A DNA stretch of 64,000 bases, taken from assembly GCF_010726085.1 (NCBI RefSeq), contig NZ_AP022560.1, positions 5,146,001-5,210,000 of the forward strand, given 5' to 3'. This document shows, in pieces, positions 20,489-44,541 of the stretch (position 1 is its first letter; every line of letters starts with the position of its first letter). Both the position numbers and the translations under genes were made by a program. The notes beneath the pieces are model-generated. The model worked only from the letters and a program-made list of their open reading frames with translations, made no database searches and had not been told where the DNA came from. This stretch comes from Mycolicibacterium moriokaense. Its GTDB lineage: Bacteria > Actinomycetota > Actinomycetes > Mycobacteriales > Mycobacteriaceae.

Positions 20489-20541
20489 GCGATTTGTGTG
20501 CGTTGAGGAGCGCTGAGCGCTCCTCAACGCACACAAATCGC
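20489..20541. repeat. Dispersed palindrome, family 2, copy 1
   Basis: A perfect 26-bp inverted repeat with a single G in the centre begins GCGATTTGTGTGCGTTGAGG. It starts right after the rsgA stop. A nearly identical copy at 21264-21312 lies on the other side of the next gene. Likely role: transcription terminator with cruciform potential. Confidence 0.9.
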
Positions 20542-20543
20542 GC

Positions 20544-20564
20544 TCAAGAATCCTTCAAGAATCC
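20544..20564 (+). promoter_or_regulatory. TCAAGAATCC direct-repeat box, site 1
   Basis: Two perfect copies of TCAAGAATCC (20544-20553 and 20555-20564) are spaced 11 bp apart, one helical turn. They end 64 bp before the start of the secreted C39-like protein. The same paired element is present, in the same orientation relative to the gene, before two other secreted-protein genes (40181-40201 and 44521-44541). Confidence 0.8.
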
Positions 20565-20628
20565 CGGCAGCCCCGCCGCCGAACCTTTCCTCAACGCAGC
20601 CGACAACGGCACAACCGAGAGGAAAGAC

Positions 20629-21255
20629 ATGAAGAAGAACTTTGCACGTGGCATCGCAGCCGCCGCACTGATGGGTGTAGCCCTGGGTTTCTCGGGCGTC
20701 GCCCATGCCGAGGTCGTCGGCGATCCCGACGGCATGGCGGGATGGACGGTCGCACAGTCCTACAACGACTGCGCACTGATGGCCGCCGCCGATGTGATCG
20801 GTCAGATCACCGGCGACGCACCCGCCGAGGACGACATCGTCACCTACGCCCAGAACACGCCGAGTGTGTCGCGGCCCGGCGACATGATCTTCGACATGGC
20901 CGCGTACGACGATGACCCGAACGGCGGAACCATCTTCGAGGACCTGCCGATCGTGCTCGCCCACTACGGCGTGAGCGGAAAGTACGTCGACGGAGCCAGC
21001 ATGGGCGCGCTGGAGGGAGTCCTGCGCGACGGCGGGGCGGTGATCGTCAACCTCAACGCCGAGACCATCTGGGACGCCGACGGTGACCGGACCGCCTCCG
21101 ACCATGCCGTGGTGGTCACGGGCGTCGACACCGACAACGGCGTGGTGCACCTCAACGACAGCGGTCCCGAGGACGGCGCCGACGAGCAGGTGAGCATCGA
21201 CACCTTCACTGCGGCCTGGCAGACCAGCGGCAACGAGATGGTGGTGACGACCTAG
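20629..21255 (+). CDS. Secreted C39-like (papain-fold) cysteine peptidase family protein, paralogue 1
   Basis: This 208-residue protein has a signal peptide (1-27, core AAALMGVALGFSGVA, cleavage after AHA). The mature part has a papain-like arrangement: Q43 and C48 in QSYNDCALMA, H159 in DHAVVVTGVD and D177 in LNDSG. This would be a Gln-Cys-His-Asp active site of the C39 type, although the mature N-terminus is very short. The substrate is unknown; a bacteriocin-transporter-linked role is unlikely, as no ABC transporter is nearby. Start ATG 20629 follows GAGAGGAAAG. A close paralogue is at 39413-40114, and both have the same direct-repeat box upstream. Confidence 0.78.
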   Translation: MKKNFARGIAAAALMGVALGFSGVAHAEVVGDPDGMAGWTVAQSYNDCALMAAADVIGQITGDAPAEDDIVTYAQNTPSVSRPGDMIFDMAAYDDDPNGGTIFEDLPIVLAHYGVSGKYVDGASMGALEGVLRDGGAVIVNLNAETIWDADGDRTASDHAVVVTGVDTDNGVVHLNDSGPEDGADEQVSIDTFTAAWQTSGNEMVVTT

Positions 21256-21263
21256 CCGGCGAC

Positions 21264-21312
21264 GATTTGTGTGCGTTGAGGAGCGCTCAGCGCTCCTCAA
21301 CGCACACAAATC
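21264..21312. repeat. Dispersed palindrome, family 2, copy 2
   Basis: A perfect 24-bp inverted repeat with a single C in the centre has the same arm sequence as 20489-20541 (GATTTGTGTGCGTTGAGG and so on). It lies 8 bp after the stop of the C39-like gene and 4 bp before the end of desA3, so it separates two convergent genes. Together the two copies bracket the C39-like gene. Confidence 0.9.
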
Positions 21313-39412: not shown

Positions 39413-40114
39413 TCAGCCGGCATCCATGGTGACGACCATGTCATGGCCGCTGGTCTGCCACGCCGCCTCGAAGACGTCGATCGGGACCTGTTCGTCGGCG
39501 CCGTCGTCGGTGCCGCTGTCGTTGAGGTGCACAACGCCGGCGTCGGTATCGACGCCCGTGACCACCAGGTCGTGGTCGGCGCTCGTGCGGTCGCCGTCCG
39601 CGTCCCAGATCATTTCGGCGTTGACGCTGGCGATCACCTTGCGGCCCTCGTCGAGGGCGTTCATGAGCGCCGTCATACCGGTCGGCACACCGATCTGGGC
39701 CGCGATGTCGTCGTCGGTGTACACGGCGCGGATGCCGTAGTGCTCCAGCAGGATCGGCAGGTCCTCCGTGTCGGTGCCGTTGCCTCCATCCGGGTTGTCG
39801 GGCGGCGGCGGCGTGTAGATCGGGCCGTCGTGGTGAGCGCTCGGCGTGGAGCTGGCCAACGCGATGATCTCGTCTTCGGTGGGCTCGTTGCCGGTCAGCT
39901 GCCCCACGACGTCCGCTGTGGCCATCAGCGAGCAGTCGTCCAGGTGCTGCTCGACATAGAACGACGTGGCGTCATCGGGGTTGCCGTGCAGGCCCCCCGA
40001 GGTGTCGTCCGCGTGGGCGATCCCACCGGCCAGGCCGACCGCGGCGGCGCCGATCAGGACGGCGGCGGTGACGGAGCGGATGCGGGTCGTGAAGGGGTTC
40101 TTCACTCGGTTCAT
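39413..40114 (-). CDS. Secreted C39-like (papain-fold) cysteine peptidase family protein, paralogue 2
   Basis: This 233-residue protein has a signal peptide (core SVTAAVLIGAAAVGLAGG, cleavage after AHA near 35). Active-site candidates are Q56 and C61 (EQHLDDCSLMA), H181 (DHDLVVTGVD) and D199 (LNDSG). It is a clear paralogue of 20629-21255, sharing EDLPI-L-HYG, NAE-IWDADGDRT and VHLNDSG-(E/D)DGADEQV. A Pro-rich insert near residue 100 (YTPPPPDNPDG) is unique to this copy. The promoter region carries the same direct repeat and a similar leader (AACCTTTTCTCAACG). It lies in a block inserted between mtrA and tmk. Confidence 0.78.
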   Translation of the reverse strand: MNRVKNPFTTRIRSVTAAVLIGAAAVGLAGGIAHADDTSGGLHGNPDDATSFYVEQHLDDCSLMATADVVGQLTGNEPTEDEIIALASSTPSAHHDGPIYTPPPPDNPDGGNGTDTEDLPILLEHYGIRAVYTDDDIAAQIGVPTGMTALMNALDEGRKVIASVNAEMIWDADGDRTSADHDLVVTGVDTDAGVVHLNDSGTDDGADEQVPIDVFEAAWQTSGHDMVVTMDAG

Positions 40115-40180
40115 GGGGTTTCCTTCTCTCAGGGCGCCCGTTATGCGCCGTTGAGAAAAGGTTTGAGCCGGCCACTACCG

Positions 40181-40201
40181 AGATTCTTGACGGATTCTTG
40201 A
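40181..40201 (-). promoter_or_regulatory. TCAAGAATCC direct-repeat box, site 2
   Basis: On the minus strand, TCAAGAATCC (40201-40192) is followed by TCAAGAATCT (40190-40181), 11 bp apart. They end 66 bp before ATG 40114 of the second C39-like protein gene. Spacing, orientation and distance are almost the same as in site 1. The stretch between box and start is also conserved between the two paralogues (CTCAACG about 33-38 bp before the ATG). Confidence 0.8.
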
Positions 40202-40224
40202 GCCGACGGTTTCCGGCGGTGCCG

Positions 40225-41778
40225 TCAGGTGGTCGAAACCCACCAGTCGTACAGCGCCTTGAGGTCGTTGCCCTGCGCGGCGCCCAGCATCAGATCCGAG
40301 GTCTTGGTCCAGACCAGATCGGCCCGCCCGTTGAGGGTTCCGCAGGCCAGCTGGCCCTCCGACTGACCGGGGGTGTTGTCGTACTCCCAGCTCGTCGGCG
40401 ACCCGTCGCTGTTGGGGCATGCGGTGAGCTCGTCGTCGGCAATCGCGCCGTCGAAGTCCTCCTGCAGCCGGTCCGCATCGCTGTAAAGCGCGTACAGCGC
40501 GCCTTCGTGGCCGTCGCCGCTCTCGGTGGGCTTGCAGTCCACCGCCGCAATGGCGTTGTCCCACTCCTTGTTCGGCGTGCACGCCGTGGGATCGGGTACC
40601 AGCGACATGAGCTGACGCTCGGCCGGGGTGAGATTGGCTGCCGTGCTGACCGAGTTCGGCGGTTCGTCGGGCACAGTACGTGTGATCGTCAGCGTCGACG
40701 ACATCGGCGAGGCGTCCTTGGGCATGCGAGCCACCAGCCACGCGACGGTGGCCGCGACCGCGATCACCAACACGACGGCCGCACCGCCGATCAGGACTGG
40801 CCGGCGGTCCCGCCGAGGAGTCGCGTCCTCGCGCCCCGAGGCTGGCGCGGCGTCGGGCGTGGCGACCGCGTTCACGGGCACCGTCTCCAGGTGGGCCGGA
40901 TGAACGGGGCTCGAGACCTCGATCATCGGCCCCGAGTCGCCCCCACCCACGATTGCCGCTGCGGCGCGGGCGAATTCGCCTGCCGTGTTGTAGCGGTCGG
41001 CGGCGTCTTTCGCCATGCCCTTCGCGATGATCGCGTCGAATGCGGGCGGAATATCGGGACGCAACTTGCTCGGCTGAGGCGGGGGTTCGATCAGATGCGC
41101 GGTGATCAGCATGCTGATGCTGTCCGCGGCGAAGGGCTGCGCACCCGTGAGGCACTGGTGCAGCACGCACGCCAGCGCGTAGATGTCGGCCTTCTCGGTG
41201 ACCGGCTTGGAACTGAACCGCTCCGGCGCCATATAGGCGTATGTGCCTATGGCCGTGCCTTTTTCGGTCAGCGTGTGGTCGGTGGCGGCGTTGGCGATGC
41301 CGAAGTCGACGAGGTAGGCGAAGTCGTCAGCGGTGATGAGGATGTTCTCCGGCTTGACGTCGCGGTGGGTGATCCCGGCGGCGTGTGCGGCGTCCAGCGC
41401 GGCGGCCACCTGGCGGATGATCCAGACCGCCCGTGCCGGCGCCATCGCGCCGTCCCTGGCCAGCACACTGCGCAGGTCGATACCGTCGATCAGCCGCATG
41501 TCGACGTAGAGGACTCCGTCGATCTCCCCGTAGTTGTGGATGGGCACCACATGCGGCTCCTGCAACTGGCCGGCTGCACGGGCCTCACGTTGCAGCCGTT
41601 CCCGGAACACCGGGTCGTGCGACAGGGAGTCGGGCAGCAGTTTGAGCGCCACGATTCGGCCCTTGACGGTGTCCTCGGCTTCGTAGACCTCGCCCATACC
41701 GCCACGACCGATGAGGCGGGTGAGGTGATAGGGGCCTAACCGTGAGCCCACCCGTGAGTTGTGCGGGGAGTCGTTCAT
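40225..41778 (-). CDS. pknH: Receptor-type Ser/Thr protein kinase PknH
   Basis: This 517-residue protein has an N-terminal kinase domain (GRGGMGEVY glycine loop, catalytic Lys46 in VALK, HRDVKPEN 138-145, DFG 158-160, APE 184-186), a juxtamembrane Pro/Ala linker, one membrane helix at about 327-350 and an extracytoplasmic domain of about 165 residues with four cysteines (PTACTP, AVDCKP, LTACPN, QLACGT) that can form two disulfides, as in PknH sensors. In M. tuberculosis PknH phosphorylates EmbR, whose gene lies just upstream here as it does there. Start ATG 41778 follows AGGAAAGG. Confidence 0.87.
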   Translation of the reverse strand: MNDSPHNSRVGSRLGPYHLTRLIGRGGMGEVYEAEDTVKGRIVALKLLPDSLSHDPVFRERLQREARAAGQLQEPHVVPIHNYGEIDGVLYVDMRLIDGIDLRSVLARDGAMAPARAVWIIRQVAAALDAAHAAGITHRDVKPENILITADDFAYLVDFGIANAATDHTLTEKGTAIGTYAYMAPERFSSKPVTEKADIYALACVLHQCLTGAQPFAADSISMLITAHLIEPPPQPSKLRPDIPPAFDAIIAKGMAKDAADRYNTAGEFARAAAAIVGGGDSGPMIEVSSPVHPAHLETVPVNAVATPDAAPASGREDATPRRDRRPVLIGGAAVVLVIAVAATVAWLVARMPKDASPMSSTLTITRTVPDEPPNSVSTAANLTPAERQLMSLVPDPTACTPNKEWDNAIAAVDCKPTESGDGHEGALYALYSDADRLQEDFDGAIADDELTACPNSDGSPTSWEYDNTPGQSEGQLACGTLNGRADLVWTKTSDLMLGAAQGNDLKALYDWWVSTT

Positions 41779-41890
41779 CGCCGCCTTTCCTCGCACGCGG
41801 CCCGGTCTCACTGGGCCGGGTGTCCCCACTTCGGCTATCCGAGCACCGTACTACTTCGCCGACAGCGACGGCGCAAGAGACGTGTCGGCG

Positions 41891-43033
41891 TCAGTTCGCG
41901 GCGGAGTCGTCGTACTCGAAGGTGAACAGGTGTCCGCAGATCCCGATCCGGTCGCCATGGGCCACCGCGACACTGCCCTGGATTCGCGCACCGTTGAGCT
42001 CGACGCCGTTGGCCGAGCGCAGATCGCTGACCGCGAAACCCGTTCCGGTGTCGATGATCGCCGCATGGTGACGGCTGACCTTCGCGTCGTCCAGCACGAT
42101 GTCGTTGTCGGGCAGCCTGCCGATCTTGGTGGCAACAGAGCTCAGCGGGTAACGATCGCCCGACGCGGCCACCAGCCACACCGCGCCGCCGCCTTTCTCC
42201 ACCTGCGTGCGCTGGTCGAGCACCGTCTTCGCACCGGCGGCCGTCGTTTGCGCGGCCGCCTTCACGTCGAGTGGCTGCTGGCGCAGGATCTTGTCGTGCA
42301 AGGTCTGCACGGTCGGGCCGGGGTCGATGCCCAGGTCGTCGGCCAATGCGGTCTTCAGCCGACGGTAGGCGTCGAGCGCGTCCGACTGGCGTTCGCAGAG
42401 GTAGTAGGCACTGATCAGCTGGGCCCACAGCGGTTCGCGGTAGGGATGGTCGGCCACCAGGGCCTCCAACTCACCGATGATCAGCGCGGCGCGACCACAC
42501 GCGAGTTCGGCTTCGGCGCGGGCGGTGGCGACGGTCAGCCGTTCCTCTTCGAGGGCGGTGGCGAACGGGTCGACGAACGGGAACTCGCGCAGATCCTCCA
42601 GCACGTCACCGCGCCACTGCGCCAACGCGACCCCCAGGTGACGACTCGCCCGCTCGAAGTCTCCGGCCGCACCGGCGAGAACACCTGCGGTTTTCTCCGT
42701 CGCGAACCGTCCGAGATCGCACGCACTGTCGGCGACGGTCAGCCGGTATCCCGGTGCGACGCTCGCCAACGTCTTCTGCGGTGCGGGGTCCGCCTGGCCG
42801 ATGAGCTTGCGCAGGTTGGACACATAGGAGTGGACGCTGCCCCTGGCGCCAGGGAGTGGCGAATCGCCCCACACCGCGCTGATCAGCGTGTCGACGGCCA
42901 CCGCGCGGTTGCGGTTGATCACCAGCGTGGCGAGGATCGCGCGCAGCTTCGGCGTCCCCACCGGAACGTCGACACCGTCGATGGTCATCTGCAGCGGGCC
43001 GAGCACACCGAAACCGAGAGCGTTACCCGACAT
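41891..43033 (-). CDS. embR: SARP-family regulator EmbR with FHA domain
   Basis: This 380-residue transcription factor has an N-terminal OmpR-like winged helix (FGVLGPLQMTIDGVDVPVG, SVHSYVSNLRKLIG), a central bacterial transcriptional activator domain (HPYREPLWAQLISAYYL, DDLGIDPGPT) and a C-terminal FHA domain (IGRLPDNDIVLDD, VSRHHA, SANGVELNG) that binds phosphothreonine. It closely resembles M. tuberculosis EmbR, which is phosphorylated by PknH and controls embCAB and thus arabinan synthesis. It lies 112 bp upstream of pknH on the same strand. Start ATG 43033 is behind GGAAGGTGG. Confidence 0.92.
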   Translation of the reverse strand: MSGNALGFGVLGPLQMTIDGVDVPVGTPKLRAILATLVINRNRAVAVDTLISAVWGDSPLPGARGSVHSYVSNLRKLIGQADPAPQKTLASVAPGYRLTVADSACDLGRFATEKTAGVLAGAAGDFERASRHLGVALAQWRGDVLEDLREFPFVDPFATALEEERLTVATARAEAELACGRAALIIGELEALVADHPYREPLWAQLISAYYLCERQSDALDAYRRLKTALADDLGIDPGPTVQTLHDKILRQQPLDVKAAAQTTAAGAKTVLDQRTQVEKGGGAVWLVAASGDRYPLSSVATKIGRLPDNDIVLDDAKVSRHHAAIIDTGTGFAVSDLRSANGVELNGARIQGSVAVAHGDRIGICGHLFTFEYDDSAAN

Positions 43034-43123
43034 ATGGTGCGCCACCTTCCCCTCGACGTGCCTCCGCCGGATCAATTGTGTCCTAGCACCGGGTCCTTTC
43101 ACGGCGGCTCGTCCGGAAACGGC

Positions 43124-43157
43124 CCTGGGGGCGCGGGCTTTCGCCCACGCCCCCAGG
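43124..43157 (-). terminator. Terminator hairpin after the Pro/Ala/Asp-rich protein gene
   Basis: A 15-bp stem with one mismatch (CCTGGGGGCGCGGGC with GCCCACGCCCCCAGG) closes the loop TTTC, 30 bp beyond the stop of the minus-strand secreted protein gene. It separates that gene from embR. Confidence 0.8.
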
Positions 43158-43187
43158 AACGGTGATGTCGCTTATTCAGTTGTGCGG

Positions 43188-44444
43188 CTACCGCTTCGGG
43201 ACGGCGACGTTGTAGCCGGGCAGCGGCCCTTCCGACGGCGCGGCGAGTCCGGGAAGCTGCAGCGTCTTGGTGATCTCGAACTGACGCTCGCCACTGGCGT
43301 TCTTCGACCACTGTCCCCAGGCGGTGTCGACGCCGTCGATCAGCACCCGGCGCGCACCCATGGAGTTGTCATCGCCGAGGTCGGCCAGTGTCTTGACCCG
43401 GAACGGCTGCGAGGTGCCGGTGGAGTAGCGCAGCTGCACCAGCACGTTCTTCAGCGTCGCAGGCGGTGCCGGCTTGGGAGCCGGTGGCTGACCAGGCTGC
43501 GGCACCGCGCCGCCGCCGGTGAAGCTGCCCACCGACACCTGCCTGATCGGTCCGGACGGTGCCGCGACCACCGCGGTAAAGGGGTACAGGCCGGCAGTCG
43601 GGGTGTTCAGAACGACGCGCTGTAGGGGCGGGACGGTGACGATCCGCGGGGCGTTGCCGTAGGTGTAGACCAACCGCAGCGGGTTGTTGTAGGGATTCAT
43701 GATGACCGGACGGTTGTATTTGTCATAGCTGACCCAGCTCGAATTCCACGTTGTCACTTCACGATTCCACGCGCCGGCGGTCAGCGTGCTATTGCTCGTC
43801 ATCGCGCCGATCACTACGTCGCTGATGTCCTGAATGTCGCCCGGTGGTGCCGGTTCGGGATCGGCCAGCACTGGATCGACGTTGTCGGCGATGTTGATGT
43901 CGTGCGGCGACGGGGCGTCGGCCGGCGGGGTATCGGCAGGGGCATCCGTAGGCGCGTCGGCCGGTGCATCGGGTACCAAATCAGCAGGCGCATCCGCCGG
44001 CACGTCCGCGGGTGCATCGGGTACCGAATCAGCAGGCGCATCCGCCGGCTCATCCACAGGTGCATCGGCGGGTGCCTCCGGTACCGCATCCGCGGGCTCG
44101 TCCGCCGGCGCCTCGGGCTCCGGATCGGCAGGCGCATCCGCCGGCTCATCCGCCGGCGCCTCGGGCTCATCCGCCGGCGTGTCGGGCACATCCACCGGCG
44201 CCTCGGGCTCCGGATCGGTGGCCGCTGGCATGTCGTAGTCGTTGTCGAACGCCGACGTATCGCCTGACGAGTCGTCTTCGTCGCCAACCTTGTGCCCGGA
44301 GAACTGCTGCGCGTGCACGGCAGGGACGCCGGCGGCCCAGTCCTGGTGGCCGGAGGTATCGGCGGCGTTGGCGCCGCCCGCCAGGCCGATGGCCGCGCTG
44401 CCGATGAGGCCGGCGACGAGGGCGGCACGGATGGTGTTCTTCAT
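43188..44444 (-). CDS. Secreted Pro/Ala/Asp-rich repeat protein
   Basis: This 418-residue protein has a signal peptide (1 to about 27, core LVAGLIGSAAIGLAGG, cleavage ANA). A long acidic, low-complexity region follows at about 70-190, built from variants of APADEPADAPAD, probably extended and wall-spanning. The C-terminal part (about 215-418) has a globular beta-rich look with NPYNNPLRLVYTYGN, QRVVLNTPTAGLYPF and ERQFEITKTLQLPG. I do not recognise the family. The N-terminus resembles C39-like paralogue 2 (ADTSG after cleavage), and the promoter region has the same direct-repeat box. It is adjacent to embR-pknH. Confidence 0.78.
   Translation of the reverse strand: MKNTIRAALVAGLIGSAAIGLAGGANAADTSGHQDWAAGVPAVHAQQFSGHKVGDEDDSSGDTSAFDNDYDMPAATDPEPEAPVDVPDTPADEPEAPADEPADAPADPEPEAPADEPADAVPEAPADAPVDEPADAPADSVPDAPADVPADAPADLVPDAPADAPTDAPADTPPADAPSPHDINIADNVDPVLADPEPAPPGDIQDISDVVIGAMTSNSTLTAGAWNREVTTWNSSWVSYDKYNRPVIMNPYNNPLRLVYTYGNAPRIVTVPPLQRVVLNTPTAGLYPFTAVVAAPSGPIRQVSVGSFTGGGAVPQPGQPPAPKPAPPATLKNVLVQLRYSTGTSQPFRVKTLADLGDDNSMGARRVLIDGVDTAWGQWSKNASGERQFEITKTLQLPGLAAPSEGPLPGYNVAVPKR
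43880..44240 (-). repeat. Degenerate Pro/Ala/Asp/Glu-coding repeats
   Basis: Imperfect tandem repeats of 12-24 bp (for example GCATCCGCCGGCTCATCC on the plus strand) encode the acidic APADEP-type segment of the secreted protein. The copies differ at many positions, so this is an older, less active repeat than the one in sigH. Confidence 0.75.
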
Positions 44445-44520
44445 TGTTCAGCTCCTGTGTCTTTTCCACGCACCCGAGTGGCGCTGGTGGTGACAACAAG
44501 GCTGCGAAGACGGCCTCCAG

Positions 44521-44541
44521 GGATTCTTGAGGGATTCTTAC
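44521..44541 (-). promoter_or_regulatory. TCAAGAATCC direct-repeat box, site 3
   Basis: On the minus strand, GTAAGAATCC (44541-44532) is followed by TCAAGAATCC (44530-44521), again 11 bp apart. They end 76 bp before ATG 44444 of the Pro/Ala/Asp-rich secreted protein. The box sits 5 bp from the tmk stop codon. Confidence 0.78.

What the first reader, a model, noticed from the sequence alone, without database searches (positions are those of the whole stretch)
20544..20564. Paired TCAAGAATCC direct repeats mark exactly three secreted-protein genes
Two 10-bp repeats spaced 11 bp apart occur at 20544-20564, 40181-40201 and 44521-44541. They always have the same orientation relative to the gene and lie 64, 66 and 76 bp before the start codon. 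The three genes are the two C39-like secreted paralogues (19 kb apart) and the Pro/Ala/Asp-rich secreted protein. I found no other paired copy in the window. The two C39 promoters also share AACCTTTYCTCAACG downstream. A one-turn direct repeat is how OmpR- and SARP-type regulators bind, so this looks like an undescribed regulon signal.
Basis: partly seen in the sequence, partly recalled or inferred. Interest (0 to 1): 0.88.

Follow-up and report, generated by a model that had tools for sequence, protein, structure and literature searches.

The report
EmbR-type SARP operator before secreted-protein genes
The paired repeats are most likely docking sites for an EmbR-like gene activator whose own gene, with a partner kinase, lies in the same window; the same promoter occurs in about a third of sampled mycobacterial genomes and gives EmbR-type regulators a testable DNA code.

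Summary
The repeats are real: three sites match the full promoter pattern with 0, 1 and 2 mismatches; the next best in the window has 8. They are the visible part of a larger promoter: 11-bp units YCAAGRATCCN, a weaker third unit, then a -10 hexamer NANNCT starting 8 bp after the third heptamer. That is the published geometry of SARP-activated promoters. The probable regulator is encoded in the window, between two of the three marked genes: an EmbR-like SARP (winged helix, BTAD, FHA) beside a Ser/Thr kinase. Of 396 genus genomes 126 have the promoter, and 124 of these carry an EmbR-type SARP, against 75 of 270 without it. None of 263 genomes of other genera in the order has it. Eight of 56 boxes lie within 3 kb of such a SARP gene, 0.14 expected. 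In this genome the seven sites found precede exported or small hydrophobic proteins; in relatives some precede biosynthetic enzymes. MtrA, encoded next door, fits poorly. Binding, phosphorylation and signal are inferred, not shown. A known kind (SARP operator), new member.

The parts
20544..20576 (+). Operator of C39 gene A: repeat units R1 20544-20554, R2 20555-20565, R3 (degenerate) 20566-20576
   Evidence: 0 mismatches to the 43-bp promoter pattern
20581..20586 (+). -10 hexamer GAACCT; predicted start site about 20593
   Evidence: column statistics of 47 non-redundant sites; start codons exactly at +49 at some other sites
20629..21255 (+). C39-like secreted protein A, target gene
   Evidence: PF13529 E 6.8e-7; signal peptide and Cys/His/Asp motifs by inspection
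40169..40201 (-). Operator of C39 gene B: R1 40201-40191, R2 40190-40180, R3 40179-40169
   Evidence: 1 mismatch
40159..40164 (-). -10 hexamer AAACCT; predicted start site about 40152
39413..40114 (-). C39-like secreted protein B, target gene
   Evidence: PF13529 E 2.4e-5
44509..44541 (-). Operator of gene C: R1 44541-44531 (GTAAGAATCCC), R2 44530-44520, R3 44519-44509
   Evidence: 2 mismatches; R1 decayed in the closest relative G080
44499..44504 (-). -10 hexamer CAGCCT; predicted start site about 44491-44493
43188..44444 (-). Pro/Ala/Asp-rich secreted protein C, target gene
   Evidence: no Pfam match; signal peptide by inspection; homologue with box in G141
41891..43033 (-). EmbR-like SARP (winged helix, BTAD, FHA), the predicted regulator; start chosen by inspection (an upstream GTG at 43102 is also open)
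   Evidence: PF00486, PF03704, PF00498; M. tuberculosis EmbR 2fez E 5e-154 over query residues 6-375, about 64% identity
40225..41778 (-). Ser/Thr protein kinase with a C-terminal part after the kinase domain, predicted partner of the SARP
   Evidence: PF00069 E 5e-43; closest solved kinase domain PknE 2h34 E 1e-115; no solved relative of the C-terminal part

Best explanation
Each paired repeat is the strong half of a SARP-type operator built into a weak housekeeping promoter. Two or three protomers of an EmbR-type SARP bind side by side on 11-bp units (YCAAGRATCCN, then a weaker YNAAGG unit). The second unit lies where a -35 element would be and the third lies in the spacer. The bound SARP recruits RNA polymerase to the poor -10 hexamer NANNCT, with the start about 7 bp after it. 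In this window the SARP is most likely the EmbR-like protein at 41891-43033. The kinase encoded next to it probably senses an envelope signal and phosphorylates the SARP or docks on its FHA domain. The outputs here are exported proteins: two C39-like putative peptidases, a Pro/Ala/Asp-rich protein, and elsewhere in the genome a lipoprotein, two DUF732 proteins and a 32-residue hydrophobic peptide. Shown: sequence anatomy, regulator gene, co-occurrence and linkage. Inferred: binding, activation, the kinase's role and the signal.
For: Geometry: among 47 non-redundant sites chosen only on offsets 0-19, A25 and G26 are each 43 of 47, A38 39 of 47, T42 39 of 47, and offset 49 a purine in 36 of 47. 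The gap between the third heptamer (22-28) and the -10 (37-42) is 8 bp, the published SARP rule (passages). A start codon opening at least 60 codons lies exactly at +49 in 6 of 77 sites (four protein families), against at most 1 at any of offsets 44-48 or 50-57. Co-occurrence: 124 of 126 promoter-positive genomes have an EmbR-type SARP, against 75 of 270 negatives (Fisher p 1e-46). Linkage: 8 of 56 boxes within 3 kb of such a gene, 0.135 expected; two of the 8 are this window's own. SARP, kinase, box, DUF732 gene follow one another at a second own locus and in G124, G145, G143; G080 keeps the whole window order, and G141 keeps C-SARP-kinase-B with no mtrA match in the 19 kb fetched (box places). 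Genomes where one search found a single EmbR-type SARP, 85-87% identical to M. tuberculosis EmbR, still carry promoter hits (overlapping ones included): G644 7, G044 5, G630 5, G073 4. The predicted recognition helix ARxSxHSYxSNLRKL is shared by the window protein, the second own locus, most of the relatives aligned and M. tuberculosis EmbR. Lineage restriction: 0 of 263 genomes outside the genus.
Against: No binding or expression data. Genomes are related, so the Fisher p overstates independence. Two promoter-positive genomes, G038 and G088, have no EmbR-type SARP at the threshold used. Of 199 genomes with one, 75 have no strong promoter hit. No box-like sequence (7 or fewer mismatches) other than the three lies in the window, so none lies before the SARP or kinase gene. 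The genome has four EmbR-type SARPs, so which one binds is not settled; paralogue 6189453 has a different helix, and the SARPs 11-12 kb from boxes in G107, G007 and G017 read ARTSIQxHxSNLRRL. The gene C box is partly lost in G080. A third C39 paralogue of this genome (2936855) has no box: best 9 mismatches. The +49 start codons are alternatives at some sites (an ATG also lies 6 bp upstream in the two GTP cyclohydrolase cases, a later ATG in another).
Confidence: 0.87

Rival explanations
1. MtrA, the OmpR-type response regulator encoded directly downstream of C39 gene B, binds the repeats.
For: mtrA is next to gene B (NCBIfam MtrA equivalog over cut-off); MtrA binds 9-bp direct repeats with 2-bp spacing (passages), the same period.
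Against: The published MtrA unit is GTnAC-like, not YCAAGRATC. Strong promoter hits are missing from 270 of 396 genus genomes, although MtrA is called the only essential response regulator of M. tuberculosis (abstract of PMC11215152 in the listing). In G141 the boxes and module have no mtrA in the 19 kb fetched. The -10 spacing and the EmbR-SARP co-occurrence have no explanation under MtrA.
Confidence: 0.04
2. A different winged-helix activator (another SARP without FHA, or an unrecognised OmpR-type factor) that happens to accompany EmbR-type SARPs reads the boxes.
For: The own genome has 8 BTAD genes, 4 of them not EmbR-type. Two promoter-positive genomes lack an EmbR-type SARP.
Against: Boxes sit beside EmbR-type genes far more often than chance, and weaker SARP relatives occur in many genomes without boxes.
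Confidence: 0.07
3. The conserved bases are the -35 and -10 elements of an alternative (ECF) sigma factor.
For: Conserved upstream block and a conserved downstream element at fixed distance.
Against: The upstream block is two to four tandem 11-bp units, unlike a -35 element, and the downstream element keeps A and T at positions 2 and 6 as in a sigma-A -10 (recalled consensus).
Confidence: 0.02
4. A dispersed repeat or chance.
For: Some single hits look accidental, such as L017 before a ribosomal-protein-like gene and L015, L020 and L022 without a clear gene; the 12-bp control gives 12 hits.
Against: 0 in shuffles, reversed controls near zero, unrelated flanks with a conserved -10.
Confidence: 0.005

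Closest known systems
SARP-activated promoters of Streptomyces (afsS with AfsR; ActII-ORF4 and DnrI heptamer repeats)
   Same: Direct repeats at 11-bp period, 3' repeat 8 bp from the -10, poor -10, repeats overlapping the -35 region (passages)
   Different: Unit is YCAAGRATCCN, not the AfsR unit CGTT(T/C)ATCGNN; many targets are exported proteins in Mycobacterium; predicted regulator carries an FHA domain
EmbR-PknH of M. tuberculosis
   Same: Same three domains, about 64% identity (71% for the paralogue at C1:1790755), kinase gene adjacent
   Different: EmbR was linked to embCAB in vitro, which PMC9239209 did not find under normal growth (abstract). None of the seven sites found in this genome precedes an emb gene. 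The words motif, consensus, direct repeat and ChIP do not occur in that paper's main text
MtrA box
   Same: Direct repeat of 9 bp with 2-bp spacer
   Different: Different unit sequence; not tied to EmbR-type SARPs

Membership tests
SARP operator/promoter | Direct repeats at 11 bp (or 22 bp) period | tested here: met
   58 hits at 11-bp period in 148 genomes (reversed control 3) against 12 at 12-bp period (reversed control 19)
SARP operator/promoter | 3' repeat 8 bp from the -10 element | tested here: met
   third heptamer 22-28, -10 hexamer 37-42; -10 fit in 34 of 36 Mycobacterium triple arrays against 10 of 44 others, whose mean G+C is lower
SARP operator/promoter | Bound by a SARP, which activates transcription | not testable with these tools
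   needs DNA-binding and expression experiments
EmbR (FHA-SARP) family, protein 41891-43033 | Winged helix, BTAD and C-terminal FHA domains | tested here: met
   PF00486, PF03704, PF00498; match to 2fez over residues 6-375; no NCBIfam model passes its cut-off
EmbR (FHA-SARP) family, protein 41891-43033 | Adjacent Ser/Thr kinase gene | tested here: met
   kinase at 40225-41778
EmbR (FHA-SARP) family, protein 41891-43033 | Phosphorylated by the neighbouring kinase | not testable with these tools
   recorded for M. tuberculosis EmbR and PknH in vitro (passages); not detected there under regular growth
Strict orthologue of M. tuberculosis EmbR | Best match among the genome's paralogues | tested here: not met
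   paralogue at C1:1790755 is 71% identical, the window protein 64%: the window protein is an EmbR-type paralogue
MtrA box | GTnAC-like repeat units | tested here: not met
   units are YCAAGRATC

The most novel reading that the evidence does not exclude
The original job of the EmbR-kinase pair in mycobacteria is a trans-envelope switch for exported proteins (C39-like, DUF732, lipoprotein, Pro/Ala-rich), later extended in some lineages to biosynthetic genes, and not control of embCAB. All EmbR proteins with the ARxSxHSYxSNLRKL helix, that of M. tuberculosis included, read YCAAGRATCC arrays at 11-bp period.
Probability: 0.5. Interest if true: 0.85.

Novelty: new member of a known kind. Interest (0 to 1): 0.66.

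Why it matters
EmbR is a much-studied mycobacterial regulator whose in vivo regulon was called 'yet to be elucidated' in 2022 (PMC9239209 abstract), and in the papers I could search I saw no operator consensus for it. If right, this gives EmbR-type proteins a precise DNA code with a defined geometry, predicted targets in about a third of the sampled genus (126 of 396), and a simple test of what the kinase-SARP pair controls. It also shows a SARP operator tied largely to exported proteins rather than only to antibiotic clusters.

Tried and rejected
ECF sigma promoter: tandem units argue against it. Chance or dispersed repeat: controls exclude it for the set. Single-unit matches elsewhere in the genome (4929898; 984162, 4170523 and 6078920): best full-pattern matches in the 3-kb loci have 6 to 8 mismatches and the sites lie inside open frames, so probably chance. 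Rfam: no match in the window. The kinase's C-terminal part has no solved relative. Own SARP paralogues 6189453 and 6012460: no strong promoter in the 17 and 16 kb around them (best 6 and 9 mismatches). Literature: a search for the motif letters showed no relevant paper among the 15 listed of 194; the listings showed no EmbR operator paper, but the library is open-access only, lists are capped, and most papers were seen as listings.

Errors of mine: one search scanned C39 loci in one orientation and is wrong for minus-strand loci; one search replaces it. In one search four relatives (L111, L113, L115, L118) were read in the wrong orientation; one search replaces that alignment, and lost three rows (L117, L128, L131) for lack of the anchor motif. 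The random background was drawn from the same loci and includes real sites, so it is a conservative null. One search clustered 92 proteins after dropping loci under 58% G+C and the named non-mycobacterial loci; the unlisted loci L220-L253 were kept without knowing their organisms.

Full report
Observation. The three paired repeats are in the sequence as described. TCAAGAATC-N2-TCAAGAATC with up to three mismatches matches only these places in 64 kb and never in 100 shuffles. The distances to the ATGs, 64, 66 and 76 bp, are right. The 10-mer is perfect in both copies only at the first site.

From repeat to promoter. The pattern was searched in 148 genomes of the genus: 58 hits in 29 genomes, against 3 hits for the reversed pattern. 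I aligned 47 non-redundant sites, chosen only by offsets 0 to 19. Conserved columns appear well outside the selected part: A and G at offsets 25 and 26 (43 of 47 each), A at 38 (39 of 47), T at 42 (39 of 47) and a purine at 49 (36 of 47). The first pair is the core of a third unit, often YCAAGG; some sites have four units. A38 and T42 are the conserved positions of a -10 hexamer, NANNCT. With a 17-bp spacer the second unit occupies the -35 position. Offset 49 is the likely start of transcription: among 77 non-redundant full sites, 6 (four protein families) have a start codon opening at least 60 codons exactly at +49, and no offset from 44 to 48 or 50 to 57 has more than one. Those would be leaderless messages, although some of these genes have another possible start nearby. 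The 12-bp period control gave 12 hits in 148 genomes, none in this genome, against 19 for its reversed pattern; so some of the 58 hits are probably chance too.

What reads such a promoter. A paper on the SARP AfsR (PMC10936776, passages) states the rule for SARP promoters: direct repeats separated by 11 or 22 bp, with the 3' repeat 8 bp from the -10, and for afsS a suboptimal -10. Here the third heptamer ends at 28 and the -10 begins at 37: 8 bp. A SARP review (PMC10972967, passages) describes heptameric direct repeats, some sites with three, overlapping the -35 region. The match is close, and the -10 columns were not used to find the sites.

The regulator is in the window. ORF 41891-43102 on the minus strand encodes winged-helix, BTAD and FHA domains and matches M. 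tuberculosis EmbR (2fez) at E 5e-154 over query residues 6-375, about 64% identical. The adjacent ORF is a Ser/Thr kinase, closest in its kinase domain to PknE among solved structures. By inspection the kinase keeps HRDVKPEN and DFG and the FHA domain keeps GR, SRH and NG. The order on the minus strand is tmk, gene C, SARP, kinase, C39 gene B, mtrA, mtrB, lpqB (tmk, mtrA, mtrB and lpqB named by NCBIfam cut-offs), and the same order is kept in G080. So two of the three marked genes flank the SARP-kinase pair and the third lies 19 kb away.

Second locus. Another EmbR-type SARP of this genome (C1:1790743-1791870) is followed by its kinase and then by a box before a DUF732 gene. G124, G145 and G143 show SARP, kinase, box and a DUF732-family gene in the same order. 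G141 keeps gene C, SARP, kinase, C39 gene with boxes before C and C39, and has no mtrA match in the 19 kb fetched. In G023, G063 and G119 a C39 gene precedes the SARP with a degenerate but correctly spaced box, for example TCAAGAATTCGTAGAGATAACGAAAAGGCCAACGGGCGAACCT (6 mismatches). One search examined 46 C39 rows: the 30 loci fetched plus nine other loci, some genes held twice. 36 have 8 or fewer mismatches upstream and 10 have 9 or more, against 202 of 3000 random stretches of the same loci; some of the 36 are probably chance. The own third paralogue is among the 10.

Statistics. Full promoter pattern YCAAGRATCCNYCAAGRATCCN4AGN11ANNNT. Own genome, up to 3 mismatches: 6 sites, reversed control 0. 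Order, up to 2: 12 of 298 genomes, all among the 35 of the same genus (my count), 0 of 263 others, reversed control 0. Genus, up to 2: 126 of 396, with one reversed-control hit in one genome. EmbR-type SARP at E 1e-90: 199 of 396 (five best candidates scored per genome). Cross-table 124, 2, 75, 195; p 1e-46. With the simple box in 148 genomes the table is 27, 2, 52, 67; p 5e-7. Relatedness of the genomes inflates both. Linkage is less exposed to that: of 56 separate boxes 8 lie within 3 kb of an EmbR-type gene (0.135 expected) and 11 within 13 kb (0.52 expected). Two of the 8 are the window's own, and some others come from related genomes.

Which paralogue. Genomes where one search found one EmbR-type SARP, 85-87% identical to M. 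tuberculosis EmbR, carry 4 to 7 promoter hits, overlapping ones included (G073, G044, G630, G644), so the orthologue seems sufficient. The helix ARxSxHSYxSNLRKL is shared by the window protein, the second own locus and M. tuberculosis EmbR; own paralogue 6189453 differs. That this stretch is the recognition helix is recalled from the OmpR-type fold, not modelled. No genome with the M. tuberculosis EmbR itself was in the sample.

Targets. In this genome: two C39-like proteins, gene C, a lipoprotein (C1:5736044), two DUF732 proteins (1788821, 3053955; Pfam) and a weaker site, also present in G080, before a 32-residue hydrophobic peptide (5699766). Export is read from the N-termini by eye and by a crude score. 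In relatives, of 92 downstream proteins clustered, the largest groups are DUF732 13, a methyltransferase protein 11, PTPS 8, C39 6, Pro/Ala-rich secreted 5, an unassigned family 5, thioesterase 5, GTP cyclohydrolase I 4; Pfam on one representative each (C39). So in M. asiaticum, M. gordonae and their kin the signal also precedes enzyme genes.

Taxonomy. A triple-unit pattern in 84,980 species genomes gave 114 stretches, 80 listed; 36 of the 80 are from Mycobacterium, Mycolicibacterium or Mycobacteriaceae. The -10 fits in 34 of those 36 and in 10 of the 44 others, so most listed hits outside mycobacteria look like chance repeats.

Against. Two promoter-positive genomes lack the SARP; 75 with it lack strong promoter hits; the gene C box is half lost in G080, where unit 1 reads CGCCGGGGAGC and unit 2 GTAAGAATCCC; four paralogues leave the exact reader open; nothing experimental was done.

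Verdict. A SARP operator and promoter, most likely read by the EmbR-type SARP and kinase pair encoded beside it; a new member of a known kind, of interest because it offers a DNA code for the EmbR family.

Noticed in passing
20489-20541 and 21264-21312: Two near-identical perfect hairpins (26-nt and 24-nt arms, 1-nt gap) flank C39 gene A; the first ends 2 bp before the box and is very stable (z -12.8). The G080 orthologue has a similar sequence upstream. Perhaps bidirectional terminators or a repeat element.
   Followed up: partly
39413-44541: The module gene C - SARP - kinase - C39 gene B sits between tmk and mtrA, which are adjacent in many mycobacteria (recalled). It looks like an insertion into the tmk-mtrA-mtrB-lpqB region; same in G080.
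   Followed up: partly
43125-43156 (-): GC-rich hairpin between gene C and the SARP gene (GGGGGCG...CGCCCCC), possibly a terminator, so the SARP may have its own promoter (by eye).
   Followed up: no
L061:4767 (C1:5699766) and L048:1964: A weaker box before a hydrophobic peptide of 32 residues (33 in G080; MIDRLRALAV...); a possible unannotated small membrane protein.
   Followed up: partly
L038, L040-L046, L177, L209, L222 (several from M. asiaticum, M. intermedium and relatives): Boxes before GTP cyclohydrolase I, PTPS, TauD, thioesterase and methyltransferase genes suggest an EmbR-type-controlled biosynthetic pathway in some mycobacteria.
   Followed up: partly
window 20629-21255 and 39413-40114; genus-wide: C39-like secreted proteins occur in 80 of 148 genus genomes, up to 9 matches in one, and often lie directly beside EmbR-type SARP genes.
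   Followed up: partly
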